Shown here: positions 6,280-33,223 of the stretch, piece by piece
How the letters are laid out: each line of letters begins with the position of its first letter
Numbering within the stretch: the stretch's first letter is position 1
Assembly: GCA_025060105.1 (NCBI GenBank)
Contig: JANXCS010000001.1
Location: forward strand, 1-42,272
Reading direction: 5' to 3'
Origin: Pseudothermotoga sp.
GTDB lineage: Bacteria; Thermotogota; Thermotogae; Thermotogales; DSM-5069
DNA length: 42,272 nt
The notes under the pieces: generated by a model
What the model was told of the DNA's origin: nothing
The model's input: only the letters and a program-made list of their open reading frames with translations
Database searches by the model: none
Made by a program: the position numbers and the translations under genes

Positions 6280-6741
6280 ATGCTCTACGAATCTTTGAGG
6301 AAAGAGTTGAGGTCCAGAAAGTACAGAATGACCGCCCAAAGGGAGATCGTTTTGAAGATTTTTGCCGAATCCGATGAGAGACATCTAGGAGCCGAAGATG
6401 TCTACAGGAAACTCTCTGAAAAGAGATACAGGATAAGCAAAGCTACAGTCTATAGAACTGTGGAACTCCTCAGCAGGCTTGGTTTTCTAAGAAAACTCGA
6501 ATTTGGAGAAGGTGTGTATCGCTACGAGCTCGCCACTCCGAATGCTGAAACGTTGCACCAGCACTTGATATGCAAAAGCTGTGGTGAACTTCTAGAGATA
6601 GACGAACAGATCGTCAAGCAACTGGTTCAGAACGTAGAAAGGCAGACTGGTTACATCGTGAAGGATTACGATGTCAAATTCTTCGGCTTGTGTCCAAAAT
6701 GCCAGAGCAAGAGTAGAAATACTGCTGAAGAAAGTATGTAG
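6280..6741 (+). CDS. fur: Fur-family metal-responsive repressor
   Basis: A Fur-family winged-helix regulator of 153 residues. The DNA-binding domain contains a typical recognition segment (SKATVYRTVELLSRLGF, about residues 49-65). A HQHLICKSCG segment and a final CPKC motif supply the two CxxC pairs of a structural zinc site. His and Glu residues in the hinge and dimerisation part fit the regulatory metal site. Whether it senses iron, zinc, manganese or peroxide cannot be told from sequence. GGGAGGTAGAGC precedes ATG 6280. It follows nusA by 13 bases and is likely cotranscribed. Its last 76 bases overlap, antisense, the end of comEC. It is a natural candidate to control the iron-storage locus at 30078-32222, which is inference. 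Confidence 0.9.
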   Translation: MLYESLRKELRSRKYRMTAQREIVLKIFAESDERHLGAEDVYRKLSEKRYRISKATVYRTVELLSRLGFLRKLEFGEGVYRYELATPNAETLHQHLICKSCGELLEIDEQIVKQLVQNVERQTGYIVKDYDVKFFGLCPKCQSKSRNTAEESM

Positions 6742-15065: not shown

Positions 15066-15352
15066 AAAGAGGTTTTCTACTGCTCGATGCCGTGGTAGGA
15101 ATGTGCATTTTATGCACCGTCGTTGGAATAGCGTTCTCTTGGGTGAAGAACCAAAGGAAGATCGTGGAAAGGTTGTACATCACGGATCTTGCGCATCGTA
15201 CCGTGGTGAACGTGTTGGTGAGGAATTTGACGTCTTCGAAGATCGATAAAGAAATACTCAACGGTTTTGAATTGGTTCGCAATGATGGTAAGATTGTTTT
15301 GAAGTTCAATAACCAGCTTTTCCAGTACGAGGTCGAAGGTGGTCAGCGTTGA
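15062..15352 (+). CDS. Type IV prepilin-like (pseudopilin) small protein
   Basis: The 96-residue protein starts MKRG followed by FLLLD and a hydrophobic stretch to about residue 27, the class III signal of type IV prepilins. Cleavage would be after Gly4. Mature residue 5 is Asp rather than the usual Glu, a conservative change also seen in some minor pilins. The remainder is short for a pilin head (about 65 residues). Its start overlaps the previous stop (ATGA) and its stop overlaps the next start (TTGA). No pilus assembly genes are adjacent, but comEC and dprA are in the window, so a minor pilin of a DNA-uptake or secretion filament is plausible. Confidence 0.75.
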   Translation: MKRGFLLLDAVVGMCILCTVVGIAFSWVKNQRKIVERLYITDLAHRTVVNVLVRNLTSSKIDKEILNGFELVRNDGKIVLKFNNQLFQYEVEGGQR

Positions 15353-16254
15353 CGTTGAGGTCCTCAGTTGGAACACTCTACAGACTCGGTTTGAGGAAAG
15401 GGTCGGTGGAGAGTTTAAAGACGGCGTACCTCATGCTCGATGGTGTGTGCATGTTCAACTGCAGTTATTGCACACACGCTTCAACTGTCAAAAATCTTTC
15501 CTACCTCAGCAGAGTGCTCTGGCCAGAGGTGGAAGATCTTTCGTTTTTTTTCGAGAGATTGGCACACAGTGACTTTGAAAGGGTCTGTGTGCAAGTTGTT
15601 TCTTATCCAAAATTTCAGAAAGATCTGTTTGAACTCATAGAGCGTTTGAAAGCTTCAAACAAAGCCATCTCTGTTTCAGTAAGGGCAGTGAGTTTGGATC
15701 TTGTGAACGAACTGTTCAAGCATGGTGTAGATAGGTTGGGGATAGCGATCGATGTCGTGAATGAGGAACTTTTCAGAAAATTTAGGGGCGGAAATCTACT
15801 CGAATTGAAACGCTTGATAGAAACTTCGGCTCGATCCTATGTGAACAGGATAACGACGCACATCATCGTTGGACTGGGGGAGAGCGATAAGGAACTCTTC
15901 GAGACGATGGTTTGGTTGAGGGACATCAACGTTGAAACTGCTCTGTTTGCTTTCATACCTTTGAAAGGAACCATTTTGGAGAGCCATCCAAGACCTTCAA
16001 TCGAGAGGTATAGAAAGATACAACTTGCACGTTTTCTGATCTACAGAGGTTTAGAGCGAGTCATCGAGTTCGAAGGTGAAACGATCAAAAGCTTCAAATG
16101 GCTCCCTTCAGATTCATACAGAGCCTTCCTGACGAGTGGTTGTCCTGACTGTACTAGACCTTACTACAACGAAAATCCATCCGGTCCACTCTACAACGTT
16201 CACTCTGAAGAGTTGTTGAGAGCGATGTCGAACTCGCTGGAGGTGATAGGGTGA
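15349..16254 (+). CDS. Radical SAM protein, LipS1/biotin-synthase-related
   Basis: A 301-residue radical SAM enzyme with the cluster motif CMFNCSYC (about residues 34-41) and a TIM-barrel pattern (THIIVGLGESDKEL). The C-terminal SGCPDCTRPYYNENPSGPLYN segment carries two further cysteines, which may bind an auxiliary iron-sulphur cluster. This combination resembles the split lipoyl synthase half known from archaea and some anaerobes (LipS1/LipS2) and annotated as biotin synthase-related; that assignment is from memory of the family pattern and is not proven. TTG 15349 has GAAGGTGGT upstream. It is embedded between the pseudopilin gene and rnfC with overlaps. The second LipS half is not in this window. 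Confidence 0.72.
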   Translation: MTLRSSVGTLYRLGLRKGSVESLKTAYLMLDGVCMFNCSYCTHASTVKNLSYLSRVLWPEVEDLSFFFERLAHSDFERVCVQVVSYPKFQKDLFELIERLKASNKAISVSVRAVSLDLVNELFKHGVDRLGIAIDVVNEELFRKFRGGNLLELKRLIETSARSYVNRITTHIIVGLGESDKELFETMVWLRDINVETALFAFIPLKGTILESHPRPSIERYRKIQLARFLIYRGLERVIEFEGETIKSFKWLPSDSYRAFLTSGCPDCTRPYYNENPSGPLYNVHSEELLRAMSNSLEVIG

Positions 16255-29264: not shown

Positions 29265-30065
29265 TCACCCCCAAATCTTTTGCCTCAGCCACTGAATTGT
29301 TCTCATCATTGACGGGCCATCATGGATCAAGTTCTTTTCTGGTTCCACCGTTGATTCTATCAGCTTAAATGGCCAGTTCCAACCTCTCCGTTCGATGAGT
29401 TTCTGGGGTTCTATTGGAAAGTCAGGTTCGTAGAAGAAAACAAGGATCTCTGGCTTCATTGAACGAACTTTTTCAAAGTCTGGAATGAAGAAGCTTTCAG
29501 CAACGTCACCGAAGATATTCTTTAACCCTGCGTATTCCACAAGATCGTTCACGAAACTTAAACCCCCGATAGTTCTCACATGTTTACCAAGCCAGAGTTC
29601 CACGTAAACTGAAAGTTTTTCACGCTTGAGCGAAGCGTCACACACGAAAGCTTTTTGCCATTTCAAAACTAAATCTTTCGCCTTTTTCACCTCTTTGAGC
29701 AGACCTCCAAGTGTGAGAACGTTCTCCCACACACCGTTTATGCTCTTCGGCAACGGTAGAACGAAGACGGGGTAATTCTTCCGATGCAGTTTTCTGGCGA
29801 GTTCTCTCTGTACGCCCGTTGTGAGCAACACAACATCAGGTTTCAAAAAGCTGAGTTTAGTTTCGTCCACATTCAAGTAATCACCGACGATTTCGACGTT
29901 CAGGTTTTTCACATAGCGAGGACAGTAACTCGAAACACCAACCACCTTGTCTCCGCATCCCAGCTCGAAGATGGTTTCAGTGAAACCAGCCACCAAACTG
30001 ACAATCCTCTCGATTCGATCTGGCAGTTCGACTTGATAATTCAACGTTTCACAGTGAATCTTCAA
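29265..30065 (-). CDS. BtuF-like helical-backbone metal receptor protein without signal peptide
   Basis: A 266-residue protein of the class III periplasmic-binding fold (BtuF/FhuD/TroA-like helical backbone). The N-terminal RIVSLVAGFTETIFELGCGDKVVGVSSYC pattern (about residues 20-48) is typical of cobalamin or siderophore receptors. It starts directly with MKIHCETLNYQVELP, with no signal peptide or lipobox, so it is predicted to be cytoplasmic. TTG 30065 has GAGGAGGG upstream, and the only sequence upstream before the VIT1 stop is 12 bases, so a hidden signal peptide is excluded. No BtuCD-type permease or ATPase is adjacent. Metal or cofactor handling near the iron genes is possible but unproven. 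Confidence 0.8.
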   Translation of the reverse strand: MKIHCETLNYQVELPDRIERIVSLVAGFTETIFELGCGDKVVGVSSYCPRYVKNLNVEIVGDYLNVDETKLSFLKPDVVLLTTGVQRELARKLHRKNYPVFVLPLPKSINGVWENVLTLGGLLKEVKKAKDLVLKWQKAFVCDASLKREKLSVYVELWLGKHVRTIGGLSFVNDLVEYAGLKNIFGDVAESFFIPDFEKVRSMKPEILVFFYEPDFPIEPQKLIERRGWNWPFKLIESTVEPEKNLIHDGPSMMRTIQWLRQKIWG

Positions 30066-30077
30066 ACTAAACCCTCC

Positions 30078-30944
30078 TCAGATTTCTATGTTGAAGATTT
30101 TTCGCGCAACCAAGCCGATGAGAAACGAAACGGCAGCGACTCCCATGCTTATGCTGAACATTTCAAGGAAGTTCTTCTTGAAGTTCTGTTCTTTCACCAC
30201 CGATACGAAGAAGGTGAACAAGAATATGACCAAAACGGCGTTCAAGATCGTCCAAAAGAGTGAAATCATCGGTCGATCGATGACGATGTAAGGAAAAACA
30301 AGAAATAGCACGGTAATCAAATAAGCCACACCGGTGTACAGAGCGGACCTGAAAGGTTTTTTACTTCCACCTTCCGATTTTCTCGAAAGATAATCTGAGG
30401 CAGACATCGACAAAGCGGCGGCTAAACCTGTGATAACACCAGAGAGTGCAACGATCTTGGAGTTTTGAATTGCCAAAGTCAAGCCAGCCAGTGCGCCTGT
30501 GAGTTCGACCAAGGCATCGTTCAAACCTAGGACCATCGAGCCTATGTATTCTATCCTCTCCTCATCTATCAAACTCAGCAACAATCTTTCATGTTCTTCT
30601 TCATCTTTAAGGAGCTCTTTTTGACCAACTTCACTGTATTTGATCTGCGCTCCTTCTTCTCCTCTTTCCATCAGTTTGAGGGTGAAGGTCAAACCGAAGA
30701 ATCTTGCGAGTAATAGATAAAAGATCACCCTCCACCAATTGGGTGTAACATCGACTTTCGTCAGATTCTTCAATTTTTTGTAGTGGTTCAGTTCATCTTT
30801 TGCTATCCTCATCAAGATTTCGGAATTTTTTTGATCGAGTTTGGAAAGCCTAGAGTAAACGATGTACTCTGTCATTTCGGCCTTCTGCATTTTCATGAGC
30901 AAAAGGTTGGTCGATGAGTACTTTCTCTCACCGTTCGATGTCAT
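30078..30944 (-). CDS. Ferritin-like / VIT1-family membrane iron transporter (MbfA-like)
   Basis: The 288-residue protein joins an N-terminal ferritin-like (rubrerythrin-type) domain to a C-terminal VIT1/CCC1 membrane domain. Candidate di-iron ligands are Glu23/Glu26, Glu51-x-x-His54, Glu93 and Glu115-x-x-His118, an arrangement typical of rubrerythrin-like four-helix proteins. The membrane domain has about five helices (GLNDALVELTGALAGLT to the C-terminus). Proteins of this design export iron or manganese in bacteria (MbfA) or load vacuoles in eukaryotes. ATG 30944 has AAAGGAGGTG upstream; the GTG at 30950 lies in that site. It is divergent from the encapsulin/ferritin pair and heads a seven-gene operon. 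Confidence 0.88.
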   Translation of the reverse strand: MTSNGERKYSSTNLLLMKMQKAEMTEYIVYSRLSKLDQKNSEILMRIAKDELNHYKKLKNLTKVDVTPNWWRVIFYLLLARFFGLTFTLKLMERGEEGAQIKYSEVGQKELLKDEEEHERLLLSLIDEERIEYIGSMVLGLNDALVELTGALAGLTLAIQNSKIVALSGVITGLAAALSMSASDYLSRKSEGGSKKPFRSALYTGVAYLITVLFLVFPYIVIDRPMISLFWTILNAVLVIFLFTFFVSVVKEQNFKKNFLEMFSISMGVAAVSFLIGLVARKIFNIEI

Positions 30945-30966
30945 TTTCACACCTCCTTTCAGTAAA

Positions 30967-30972
30967 ATTCTA
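30967..30972 (-). promoter_or_regulatory. Candidate -10 of the VIT1-led operon
   Basis: TAGAAT on the minus strand (30972-30967) would start transcription near 30960, right at the AAAGGAGG ribosome site. No good -35 is present; the 19-base inverted repeat lies where it would be. Confidence 0.35.
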
Positions 30973-30984
30973 ATCGAACAATTG

Positions 30985-31003
30985 CTTCGTTGAGCGAACG
31001 AAG
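30985..31003. repeat. 19-base inverted repeat, candidate operator
   Basis: CTTCGTT (30985-30991) and its exact complement AACGAAG (30997-31003) flank a 5-base GAGCG centre. It sits in the 146-base divergent space between the VIT1-type gene and the encapsulated ferritin gene, over the expected -35 region of the leftward promoter. A dimeric repressor site is the simplest reading; it does not match a classic Fur box. A hairpin in RNA is also possible but no T tract follows. Confidence 0.5.
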
Positions 31004-31064
31004 TCGCACAGGTGTGTACGAACGGCTGACCTTCGGTATAACAAATGGTTTTGATACATTTTTG

Positions 31065-31073
31065 TGTTAAAAT
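31065..31073 (+). promoter_or_regulatory. Candidate extended -10 of the ferritin-encapsulin operon
   Basis: TGT precedes TAAAAT (31068-31073). Predicted initiation near 31080 falls at the GGGGGTGA ribosome site, the same geometry as at the rbgA, glgD and VIT1 starts. No clear -35. Confidence 0.4.
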
Positions 31074-31090
31074 TCAATGGGGGTGAAAAG

Positions 31091-31432
31091 ATGCCAGAAT
31101 TCGTCAATCCGTTCAGTGGTAAGGTGCCTGAAAGAAAGTTGACTCTCTCAGAGCTCATAAGGGCCATAAGACTCAACATTGCAGCCGAACATGAAGCGGT
31201 CCACCAATACATGGCGCATGCCGATGCGACGGATCATCCTCTGGCGAAAAAGGTGCTCATGGACATTGCCAATGAAGAGAGGGTACACATAGGTGAGTTC
31301 ACACGGTTGCTTGAGATACTCACAAAGGACGAAGCGGATTTCATGAAACAAGGTGCCAAAGAAGTCGAAGAACTCATGTCGGAAGGAGAGGATGAGGAAC
31401 CAACGATCGGTTCACTGAAGGAAGGTGATTGA
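31091..31432 (+). CDS. Encapsulated ferritin-like cargo protein (EncFtn)
   Basis: A 113-residue two-helix ferritin-like protein that oxidises ferrous iron once packed inside an encapsulin shell. Glu33, Tyr40, Glu63 and His66 (NEERVHIGE) match the spacing of the ferroxidase residues of EncFtn (in Rhodospirillum rubrum Glu32, Tyr39, Glu62, His65). After an acidic linker the C-terminus reads PTIGSLKEGD, which fits the encapsulin targeting peptide (consensus around T-V/I-G-S-L-R/K). ATG 31091 is preceded by GGGGGTGA at about 5 bases. The encapsulin ATG follows its stop by one base. Confidence 0.93.
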   Translation: MPEFVNPFSGKVPERKLTLSELIRAIRLNIAAEHEAVHQYMAHADATDHPLAKKVLMDIANEERVHIGEFTRLLEILTKDEADFMKQGAKEVEELMSEGEDEEPTIGSLKEGD

Positions 31433-31433
31433 G

Positions 31434-32222
31434 ATGGCCAACAAGTATCTAATGCAAGAGGATGCTCCGGTGAGCTCTGAAGTTTGGAAATTGTTGAACG
31501 AAGTACTCCTTCAATTGGCGAAGGACAATTTGACCGGTAGAAAATTGTTCCATCTGGTGGGACCAATCGGTTTGGGTGTGAAACAGATATCTCTCTCAGA
31601 CGAAGAGGTCAATCCGGGTGTTTTCGTTTCCAGAGCACTTCCGTTGTTCTATATTCACAGAACCTTTGAACTTTCTATCAGAGATATCGCAGCTTTCGAA
31701 AAAGAGAAAATAACTCTCGATCTTGCGAGTTTCAAAAAAGCCGTCTTGGAATGTCTAGAGCTGGAGGATAAGTTGATCTTTCATGGATTAGCCGATCAAA
31801 AAGGGATTTTGAACTGTGACGGTGTGATTGAAACGAAGATGAAGGATTGGAAGGAGATCGGTCAAGCTGCAGATGATGTTATCGAAGCCGTCACCAAGCT
31901 CGATGAAGCAGGTTTTCATGGCCCCTACTTGCTTGCCCTTTCACCTGATAGATACAACAAGCTGATGAGAAGATACGAGAGCGGTAACCAAACTGAGCTT
32001 GAGCACATCTCCATGATGGTGAAGAAGGTCTACAAAGCTCCCATATTGAAAAATTCAGGTGTTTTGATATGTGACTCACCGTTCTACGTTTCTTTGATCG
32101 TCGGACAAGATCTGTCCATAGGTTTTGTCGGTCCGAAGGATCACACACTGGAGTTCTCTCTGTCTGAAAGCGTAGCGCTTTTGGTGAGAGAGCCAAAATC
32201 TGTGTGCGTTCTGAGGGGCTGA
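31434..32222 (+). CDS. Encapsulin nanocompartment shell protein, family 1
   Basis: Shell protein with the HK97 phage capsid fold, 262 residues, close to the 265 of the Thermotoga maritima encapsulin. Recognisable stretches are GRKLFHLVGPIG (E-loop entry), RALPLFYIHRTFEL, LEDKLIFHG and LIVGQDLSIGFVG. It should self-assemble into a closed shell around the ferritin-like cargo encoded just upstream, keeping iron mineral away from the cytoplasm. ATG 31434 is supported by GGAAGGTGA 6 bases upstream. It differs from the T. maritima protein at many positions, but the family assignment is firm. It converges on csaB with 8 bases between stops. Confidence 0.93.
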   Translation: MANKYLMQEDAPVSSEVWKLLNEVLLQLAKDNLTGRKLFHLVGPIGLGVKQISLSDEEVNPGVFVSRALPLFYIHRTFELSIRDIAAFEKEKITLDLASFKKAVLECLELEDKLIFHGLADQKGILNCDGVIETKMKDWKEIGQAADDVIEAVTKLDEAGFHGPYLLALSPDRYNKLMRRYESGNQTELEHISMMVKKVYKAPILKNSGVLICDSPFYVSLIVGQDLSIGFVGPKDHTLEFSLSESVALLVREPKSVCVLRG

Positions 32223-32231
32223 TCGCCCCTC
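32213..32231. terminator. Hairpin between convergent encapsulin and csaB
   Basis: GAGGGGC (32213-32219) pairs with GCCCCTC (32225-32231) around TGATC, which contains the end of the encapsulin stop. It touches the csaB stop on the other strand. The T content after it is modest (TATTCCCCTTT), so it may act as a weak two-way terminator or a 3'-end stabiliser. Confidence 0.55.
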
Positions 32232-33223
32232 TATTCCCCTTTAAGTGCTTTCAACAGATTCAGAACGTCGTTCCACATCTTTGTGTAATCTTCCACCAAT
32301 TTTTTGGTGTCAAGTTTCGTATCTTTCAATTTCATGATGGTCAGAGCGATCTTTGTGGGATCTTCTTTGGAACAAAAACCTTCATACTTTGGGAAATATC
32401 GCTCGAAGAATCTTTTACTCTTGAGGTTGTTCAAAGATATGAATGGAATACCAGCCAAACATGATATGAGACAACCGTGCATACGTTGAGAGACGACGAA
32501 GGATGAAGAGACCAAATCTCTCAGCGGTTGAGTTGAGATGCGTAAACCGTACTTTTTTGAAACGCGCTCGCACGCAGGTTCATCTTGAGGACTGAGTGGT
32601 ACGAGCAAAATCTCTGAAAAGCCACAGATCTCCGCAACGGTGATGATGGGTTCTAGTTCTATCTCACTCTTCAGGCATAGACTGATCCTTTTCTCTTTCT
32701 CCAACTTCGGCAAGTCTTCAATCATTCCAACTGCCAGGTCCGTTCCAAGCGAGACATGCTTGGCTCCAACGAGTTTGGCGTACTTGAAACTCACCGGGTC
32801 TCGAGCAATGAAATAGAGATTTCTCCTTTTTAAAATGAATCTAACGATGCATCTTGAAATCGTGCGTTTCAGAGGTCCCAAGCTGTTGGCGAGCAACAAC
32901 ACAGGTTTCCCAAGAGCGAGCGAAATCAGGATGAGAGAGGAGTAGTAAAGCAAGCTCTTCAAACTGGTTTGATCTTGAAGAATACCTCCACCACCGCAAA
33001 CGACCACGTCGCTTTTGAAGATCGCCTGAAAAACTTTTATAAGGTCGAACCGATCGATGGGTAGAATACCAGTTTGCAGAAAATCTTTCACTTTTTTTCT
33101 ATTCACCAGCAGATATATTTTGTCGAAGTGTGCTTCTTTGAGCGTTTTGATGCTTTGCCGACACAGCAACTCGTCTCCAAGATTGTCATAACCATAATAA
33201 CCGAACAGTGTAGCTGCTTTCAA
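32231..33223 (-). CDS. csaB: CsaB-type polysaccharide pyruvyl transferase
   Basis: A 330-residue GT-B-like enzyme of the polysaccharide pyruvyl transferase family. The N-terminal GYYGYDNLGDELL motif, the GGGGILQD loop, NSLGPL, ARDPVS and SQRMHGCLISCLAGIPF near residues 240-256 are all typical of CsaB. CsaB adds ketal pyruvate to secondary cell-wall polysaccharide so that SLH-domain proteins can attach; in Thermotogales it may serve anchoring of the outer sheath (toga), which is inference. TTG 33223 has GAGGAG about 10 bases upstream. It faces encapsulin and diverges from the MBL-fold gene. Confidence 0.88.
   Translation of the reverse strand: MKAATLFGYYGYDNLGDELLCRQSIKTLKEAHFDKIYLLVNRKKVKDFLQTGILPIDRFDLIKVFQAIFKSDVVVCGGGGILQDQTSLKSLLYYSSLILISLALGKPVLLLANSLGPLKRTISRCIVRFILKRRNLYFIARDPVSFKYAKLVGAKHVSLGTDLAVGMIEDLPKLEKEKRISLCLKSEIELEPIITVAEICGFSEILLVPLSPQDEPACERVSKKYGLRISTQPLRDLVSSSFVVSQRMHGCLISCLAGIPFISLNNLKSKRFFERYFPKYEGFCSKEDPTKIALTIMKLKDTKLDTKKLVEDYTKMWNDVLNLLKALKGE

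What the first reader, a model, noticed from the sequence alone, without database searches (positions are those of the whole stretch)
30078..32222. Divergent iron locus: encapsulin nanocompartment with ferritin-like cargo opposite a ferritin-VIT1 membrane transporter
The cargo (residues matching the EncFtn ferroxidase site plus a C-terminal targeting peptide) and shell gene are back to back with a rubrerythrin/VIT1 fusion that could move iron across the membrane. A shared 146-base intergenic region suggests joint control of storage and export. A signal-less metal-receptor-like protein follows in the transporter operon. Encapsulated ferritins and MbfA-like proteins are each known; the paired divergent layout is the notable part.
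Basis: partly seen in the sequence, partly recalled or inferred. Interest (0 to 1): 0.65.

Follow-up and report, generated by a model that had tools for sequence, protein, structure and literature searches.

The report
Encapsulin iron store beside iron exporter
A heat-loving bacterium keeps a protein-shell iron store and a membrane protein that probably pumps iron out in back-to-back genes; each part is of a known kind, and the pairing is real but confined to a small group of relatives and can be broken.

Summary
Window 31091-31432 (+) encodes a ferritin-like encapsulin cargo (EncB family) with a C-terminal targeting peptide. 31434-32222 (+) is its family 1 shell. 30078-30944 (-) is a fused ferritin-like/VIT1 membrane protein, divergent across exactly 146 bases. 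Best reading: iron storage plus iron export, as with bacterioferritin and MbfA. Function is inferred from family membership, invariant metal-ligand residues and a fold match to VIT1.

The pairing was tested in Thermotogota genomes. It is kept in the window's genus, in one related genome (G009) and in another family (f8), in at least three different surroundings. A sugar-acid gene cassette split it in three species, it is absent in G006, and it was not seen in Thermotoga-like or other families. A shared promoter region is therefore not required, and joint control is unproven. The solute-binding gene follows only in the window's genus.

Two further results. Cargo and shell are not the T. maritima type; their closest relatives are in Chloroflexota and Atribacterota. 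Across the phylum, encapsulin and a close peptide-less free homologue of the cargo never occur together (0 of 44 shell genomes, 36 of 59 others).

The parts
30078..30944 (-). Fused ferritin-like / VIT1 (CCC1-type) membrane protein, 288 aa, probable Fe2+ exporter (MbfA-like)
   Evidence: PF01988 63.7 bits; AlphaFold pLDDT 86, five-helix membrane domain; Foldseek best hit VIT1 6iu4/6iu3, probability 1.00; D143 and M180 align without gaps to EgVIT1 D43/M80 and are invariant
30570..30914 (-). Ferritin-like di-iron domain of the transporter (residues 11-125), cytosolic by analogy with MbfA
   Evidence: Helices 11-36, 41-62, 85-106, 109-125; E23/E26, E51xxH54, E93/E96, E115xxH118 invariant in 14 homologues; weak Foldseek matches to di-iron ferritin-like folds
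30945..31090 (.). 146-base divergent intergenic region with both Shine-Dalgarno sites and, by inspection, an extended -10-like block (31065-31073) before the cargo
   Evidence: Sequence; block CATTTTTGTG(T/C)TA(A/C)AAT kept in the four species of the genus; the consensus promoter scan gave nothing above chance
30985..31003 (.). 19-bp inverted repeat CTTCGTT-N5-AACGAAG, candidate operator of unknown regulator
   Evidence: Inner pattern TTCGTTN5AACGAA: two exact sites in the genome; only partly conserved in the genus and not seen in G009 or f8; function not shown
31091..31432 (+). Encapsulated ferritin-like cargo (EncB/EncFtn family), 113 aa
   Evidence: NF058679 118.5 bits > 90; PDB relatives 7s8t EncC and 5n5e P. 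furiosus; E33, E63, H66 kept
31394..31429 (+). C-terminal encapsulin targeting peptide EEPTIGSLKEGD
   Evidence: Kept in every window-type relative with an adjacent shell gene, as EEP(T/S)(I/V)GS(L/M)(K/R)(E/D)G; absent from free homologues; matches published consensus SDGSLGIGSLKRS (PMC8346489)
31434..32222 (+). Family 1 encapsulin shell protein, 262 aa, HK97-type
   Evidence: PF04454 5.7e-67, NF041155 4.6e-61; PDB best hit M. xanthus EncA 1.8e-32, T. maritima 3dkt 1.8e-19; R83 at the flavin-stacking W87 position of T. maritima
29265..30065 (-). Helical-backbone metal-receptor-like protein without signal peptide; neighbour, not a conserved part
   Evidence: NF038402 48.3 bits > 30; adjacent to VIT only in G000, G001, G002, G004

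Best explanation
This is a two-branch iron-detoxification locus. On the + strand, a ferritin-like ferroxidase is drawn into an encapsulin shell by its C-terminal IGSLK peptide and oxidises Fe2+ so that ferric iron is stored in the shell. On the - strand, an MbfA-like protein binds Fe2+ with its cytosolic ferritin-like domain and passes it to its VIT1 domain, which exports it. The two branches act on the same cytosolic iron pool, one storing and one expelling. Shown by computation here: the families, the conserved candidate metal ligands, the VIT1 fold, the peptide-shell correlation, and the persistence of the pairing in several surroundings. Inferred: iron as substrate, export direction, ferroxidase activity and cargo loading. 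Joint transcriptional control is possible but not shown, and it is not needed in relatives. The neighbouring metal-receptor-like gene is not part of the unit.
For: Family and PDB matches. Invariant di-iron candidate residues and VIT1 pore residues D143/M180. AlphaFold/Foldseek match to VIT1. Targeting peptide kept where a shell gene is adjacent and absent in the homologues of shell-less genomes. Divergent pairing kept in G000, G001, G002, G004, G009 and both f8 copies of G049, with different flanks: FliM/CsaB, purE/pyrE, valS or proAB; the f8 VIT branches with G009 (support 91), as expected if the unit moved together. Precedent: MbfA has a cytosolic ferritin-like domain required for iron transport (PMC7762939); in Bradyrhizobium mbfA and bfr are synthetically lethal under iron stress, both controlled by Irr, and evidence for interaction of Bfr with the MbfA ferritin-like domain is reported (PMC4902296).
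Against: No experiment. The VIT-fold match has Foldseek E 3e-3 and 16-17% identity. The protein lacks the cytosolic metal-binding region between TM2 and TM3 of EgVIT1, though the N-terminal ferritin-like domain could replace it. G000 also has one classical ferritin, so the encapsulin is not its only ferritin. The pairing is absent in G006 and interrupted in G007, G008 and G010.
Confidence: 0.75

Rival explanations
1. The adjacency is historical accident: an encapsulin operon of foreign origin landed beside the resident ferritin-VIT1 gene and the pair is simply inherited; the two share no regulation. (This rivals the linkage part of the best explanation, not the protein functions.)
For: VIT without adjacent encapsulin is common in Thermotogota; VIT lies beside pyrE in both G006 (no encapsulin there) and G009; cargo and shell group with other phyla; the intergenic region was split by a Kdu-type cassette with no visible damage to the genes; within the genus the whole neighbourhood is conserved, so adjacency there carries no extra information.
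Against: The pair persists in at least three different surroundings and appears twice in the f8 genome as one unit; in the f8 copies, by inspection, the -10-like elements of the two genes lie within about 20 bases of each other.
Confidence: 0.4
2. The encapsulin branch serves mainly oxygen or peroxide detoxification, rubrerythrin-like, with iron binding secondary.
For: The cargo falls in Pfam Rubrerythrin (36.6 bits) and weakly in Mn catalase; the host lineage is anaerobic (established knowledge of Thermotogota); a review notes that encapsulated ferritins may mainly buffer reactive iron during oxidative stress because most hosts also have ferritins (PMC11202242), as does G000.
Against: The cargo lies in the EncB/EncFtn family, whose R. 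rubrum member is a demonstrated ferroxidase (PMC5012862), and the neighbouring gene is an iron-transporter homologue.
Confidence: 0.3
3. The VIT1-type protein moves manganese or another divalent metal, or acts as importer, so the pair is not an iron store/export couple.
For: VIT/CCC1 relatives can carry Mn2+ and other divalent metals (own knowledge); substrate not testable here.
Against: Invariant E/ExxH di-iron-type residues in the N-terminal domain, as expected of an MbfA-like iron exporter, and pairing with a ferroxidase-type cargo.
Confidence: 0.12

Closest known systems
Family 1 (classical) encapsulin with Flp/EncFtn cargo (M. xanthus EncA/EncB/EncC, R. rubrum and H. ochraceum EncFtn)
   Same: Cargo directly upstream of shell (the general family 1 layout), targeting peptide, conserved Glu/Glu/His, PF04454 shell with best PDB hit M. 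xanthus EncA.
   Different: Single cargo gene; divergent ferritin-VIT1 neighbour.
T. maritima encapsulin and its ferritin-like cargo (3dkt/7kq5)
   Same: Same phylum, same overall system type.
   Different: Thermotoga-type shell about 25% identical; flavin-stacking W87 is R83 here (PMC8086157); cargo of another subfamily with peptide ending GDLGIRK(L/I); VIT over 250 kb away or on another contig in the genomes checked.
MbfA (membrane-bound ferritin, Bradyrhizobium/Agrobacterium)
   Same: N-terminal ferritin-like domain fused to VIT/CCC1 membrane domain; known iron exporter working with bacterioferritin (PMC4902296, PMC7762939).
   Different: No sequence comparison with MbfA itself was made here; paired with an encapsulin rather than bacterioferritin; regulator unknown.
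IMEF encapsulin operons of Firmicutes
   Same: Iron-storing encapsulin with linked iron-handling accessory genes.
   Different: Different cargo family and accessory genes (Bfd-like ferredoxin, ferrochelatase-like proteins; PMC6668986).

Membership tests
Family 1 encapsulin (Linocin_M18 shell) | HK97-type shell protein over the curated cut-off | tested here: met
   PF04454 226.1 bits > 24.3; NF041155 206.5 > 100
Family 1 encapsulin (Linocin_M18 shell) | Cargo gene directly upstream with C-terminal targeting peptide | tested here: met
   EEPTIGSLKEGD, 1 base between cargo stop and shell start; peptide kept in orthologues with an adjacent shell gene
Family 1 encapsulin (Linocin_M18 shell) | Self-assembly into icosahedral loaded shells | not testable with these tools
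   Needs expression and microscopy
Encapsulated ferritin (EncFtn/EncB family) | Family model over cut-off | tested here: met
   NF058679 118.5 > 90; the narrower TIGR04535 (84.7 of 125) and EncB exception model NF058678 (29.7 of 210) are not met
Encapsulated ferritin (EncFtn/EncB family) | Glu/Glu/His ferroxidase residues | tested here: met
   E33, E63, H66 align with EncC 7s8t and P. furiosus 5n5e; the R. rubrum E32/E62/H65 correspondence (PMC5012862) is by spacing, not a direct alignment
Encapsulated ferritin (EncFtn/EncB family) | Ferroxidase activity | not testable with these tools
   Needs a biochemical assay
VIT1/CCC1 transporter | VIT1 domain with conserved pore residues and five TM helices | tested here: met
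   PF01988 63.7 > 28.1; D143/M180 = EgVIT1 D43/M80; five helices 128-284; Foldseek 6iu4 probability 1.00
VIT1/CCC1 transporter | Cytosolic metal-binding region between TM2 and TM3 as in EgVIT1 | tested here: not met
   Loop is short (about residues 189-197); the N-terminal ferritin-like domain may stand in, so it is placed as ferritin-VIT1/MbfA-like, not plant-type VIT1
MbfA-like membrane-bound ferritin | N-terminal ferritin-like domain with di-iron residues fused to VIT | tested here: met
   Candidate E/ExxH residues in four helices invariant; no Pfam ferritin domain call
MbfA-like membrane-bound ferritin | Iron export | not testable with these tools
   Needs a transport assay

The most novel reading that the evidence does not exclude
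In Thermotogota the encapsulated ferritin and a free, peptide-less close homologue are alternative solutions to one iron-handling task. Genomes hold either an encapsulin (of either lineage) or the free protein, never both, and lineages have switched state at least four times. The targeting peptide has also arisen or been lost more than once: some methanogen cargos with the peptide group with the free forms. The ferritin-VIT1 exporter accompanies either state, and in this clade it became physically linked to the encapsulated one.
Probability: 0.5. Interest if true: 0.6.

Novelty: new member of a known kind. Interest (0 to 1): 0.42.

Why it matters
Iron storage and iron export are known to work together in Bradyrhizobium, but I found no paper describing an iron-exporter homologue linked to an encapsulin. 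This locus gives a compact pair from a thermophile in which to test whether a ferritin-like transporter domain and an encapsulin share one iron pool. The mutual exclusion of encapsulin and free homologue across the phylum turns the question 'what does the shell add?' into a direct comparison of natural alternatives.

Tried and rejected
Viral contigs: no relative of the shell. A Fur box (TGATAATNATTATCA, 3 mismatches) gives three window sites, at chance level, none near the locus. Consensus promoter/terminator scan of 30880-32300 at chance level. The palindrome TTCGTTN5AACGAA is rare, but the count with one mismatch is only twice that of the reversed control (18 vs 9) and it is not conserved outside the genus, so no regulator is claimed. 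VIT linkage to encapsulin outside Thermotogota: no VIT homologue within the fetched flanks of any non-Thermotogota shell locus, though VIT1-family genes exist elsewhere in 7 of 16 of those genomes. Idea that the encapsulin is the sole ferritin: rejected, a classical ferritin is present. Idea that the shell is the T. maritima type: rejected. Recurrent neighbour genes of the related shells in other phyla: the cargo is the only one shared by most loci.

Full report
What is there. The window belongs to a genome of about 1.92 Mb in 21 contigs; a same-family relative is a public Pseudothermotoga MAG. Four genes were checked. 31091-31432 (+) is a 113-aa ferritin-like protein of the NCBIfam EncB family (118.5 bits against 90), with structural relatives EncC of Myxococcus (7s8t) and the P. 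furiosus domain (5n5e). It ends EEPTIGSLKEGD, which fits the published family 1 consensus SDGSLGIGSLKRS (PMC8346489). 31434-32222 (+) is a family 1 shell. 29265-30065 (-) is a helical-backbone metal-receptor-like protein with no signal peptide.

The transporter. AlphaFold (14-sequence alignment, mean pLDDT 86) gives an N-terminal helical bundle (helices 11-36, 41-62, 85-106, 109-125) and five long helices at 128-284. Foldseek against the PDB ranks VIT1 (6iu4, 6iu3) first with probability 1.00 and modest E-values of 3e-3 to 4e-3; weaker hits include di-iron ferritin-like enzymes. The pore residues D43 and M80 of Eucalyptus VIT1 (residue roles from my own knowledge of that structure) correspond without gaps to D143 and M180. 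They and all eight candidate di-iron residues (E23, E26, E51, H54, E93, E96, E115, H118) are invariant in 14 homologues. The plant-type metal-binding region between TM2 and TM3 is missing; the ferritin-like domain is the likely replacement. This is the architecture described for MbfA, whose ferritin-like domain is cytosolic and required for iron transport (PMC7762939).

Is the pairing conserved? The VIT, shell and cargo were searched in 81 genomes, and shell and cargo relatives in all 103 held genomes of the phylum. In the window's genus (G000, G001, G002, G004) the whole neighbourhood from the ABC transporter to FliM is conserved, so the adjacency there carries no extra information. In G009 the pair stands between purE and pyrE; in family f8 genome G049 it occurs twice, once before valS and once after proAB, the second copy with a truncated shell. 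In the three-species clade G007, G008 and G010 a KduI/KduD-type sugar-acid cassette lies between VIT and cargo; the flanking purE shows that it entered the ancestral intergenic region, and G010 retains only KduD. In G006 VIT is beside pyrE, as in G009, but the encapsulin is elsewhere. In the Thermotoga-like and Petrotoga-like genomes whose coordinates could be compared, VIT and shell are more than 250 kb apart or on other contigs. In f8 genome G059 the locus is decaying: the VIT frame has three stops, the cargo frame stops just before the targeting peptide, and no shell was found. The pairing is therefore real and has survived or moved through several surroundings, but it is lineage-limited and can be broken. 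A shared promoter region cannot be essential.

Control region. In the genus the block CATTTTTGTG(T/C)TA(A/C)AAT before the cargo is kept, and an imperfect TTCGTT...CGAA element lies nearer the transporter. In the window the latter is a 19-bp inverted repeat at 30985-31003, with two exact genomic copies of its inner pattern. It is not seen in G009 or f8, no Fur box is present, and the promoter scan is at chance level. Two Fur-family genes exist, one at window 6280-6741. Joint control remains open.

Origin. The cargo is 73-78% identical to encapsulated cargos of five Chloroflexota MAGs (Thermoflexus, Anaerolineae and others), whereas the window-type cargos are only 54-59% identical to the free homologue of Thermotogota used as query. 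In the cargo tree the window clade and most encapsulated cargos are separated from the free forms at 100/100. The shell groups with Atribacterota shells (98/98) and is only about 25% identical to the Thermotoga type. The flavin-stacking W87 of T. maritima is R83 here (W87R is predicted to weaken flavin binding, PMC8086157). The VIT gene by contrast is widespread in the phylum, and the window family's VIT sequences form one group that also holds f8, next to G009 (supports 96 and 91). The simplest history is a resident VIT joined by an incoming cargo-shell operon; this is inference.

A wider pattern. Shell-less Thermotogota carry a close homologue of the cargo that lacks the targeting peptide, ending for example EVEEEIEKLK. 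Across the 103 genomes, 44 have a shell and 36 have this free form, and none has both (0/44 against 36/59; Fisher p = 3.3e-12; first seen in 81 genomes). Genomes are not independent, so the p-value overstates the case, but both states occur within families f2, f3 and f9 and even within one genus (G040 has a shell and no free form; its well-sequenced congeners the reverse), so at least four switches are needed. Two methanogen cargos with the TIGSLKE peptide group with the free forms, so the peptide has been gained or lost more than once. Non-encapsulated Flp proteins are already known (PMC6668986, PMC11202242); I did not find the phylum-wide exclusion described.

Mechanism and verdict. The best-supported mechanism is storage plus export of cytosolic iron, with Bradyrhizobium as precedent: mbfA and bfr are synthetically lethal under iron stress and work in concert (PMC4902296). 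A classical ferritin is also present, so the encapsulin adds capacity or stress protection rather than being the only ferritin. All parts are members of known kinds; the linked layout is a modest novelty. Only one paper in the searched library mentions both encapsulin and VIT1, a review that treats them separately. That library is limited, so absence of a report is weak evidence.

Noticed in passing
L101-L128 and window 31091-31432: Encapsulin shell and the free, peptide-less EncB-family homologue never co-occur in 103 Thermotogota genomes (0/44 shell genomes vs 36/59 others).
   Followed up: partly
L150:2825-3187, L151:9619-9987: Methanogen cargos with a TIGSLKE targeting peptide branch with the free Thermotogota forms, suggesting repeated gain or loss of the peptide.
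   Followed up: partly
L085, L086, L087 (G008, G007, G010): A KduI/KduD/IclR (plus TRAP in G008) sugar-acid cassette sits inside the ancestral VIT-cargo intergenic region; only KduD is left in G010.
   Followed up: yes
L091:4243-4500 (G049): Second copy of the VIT-cargo-shell unit with a truncated shell gene, beside an intact copy on another contig (L090).
   Followed up: partly
L092:5929-7033 (G059): Decaying locus: stops in the VIT frame, a stop in the cargo frame just before the targeting peptide, and no shell found.
   Followed up: partly
window 6280-6741: Fur-family regulator gene just downstream of nusA, about 24 kb from the locus; a second Fur-family gene lies on contig C8.
   Followed up: no
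window 15349-16254: LipS2-type lipoyl synthase (302.6 bits, over cut-off 270).
   Followed up: no
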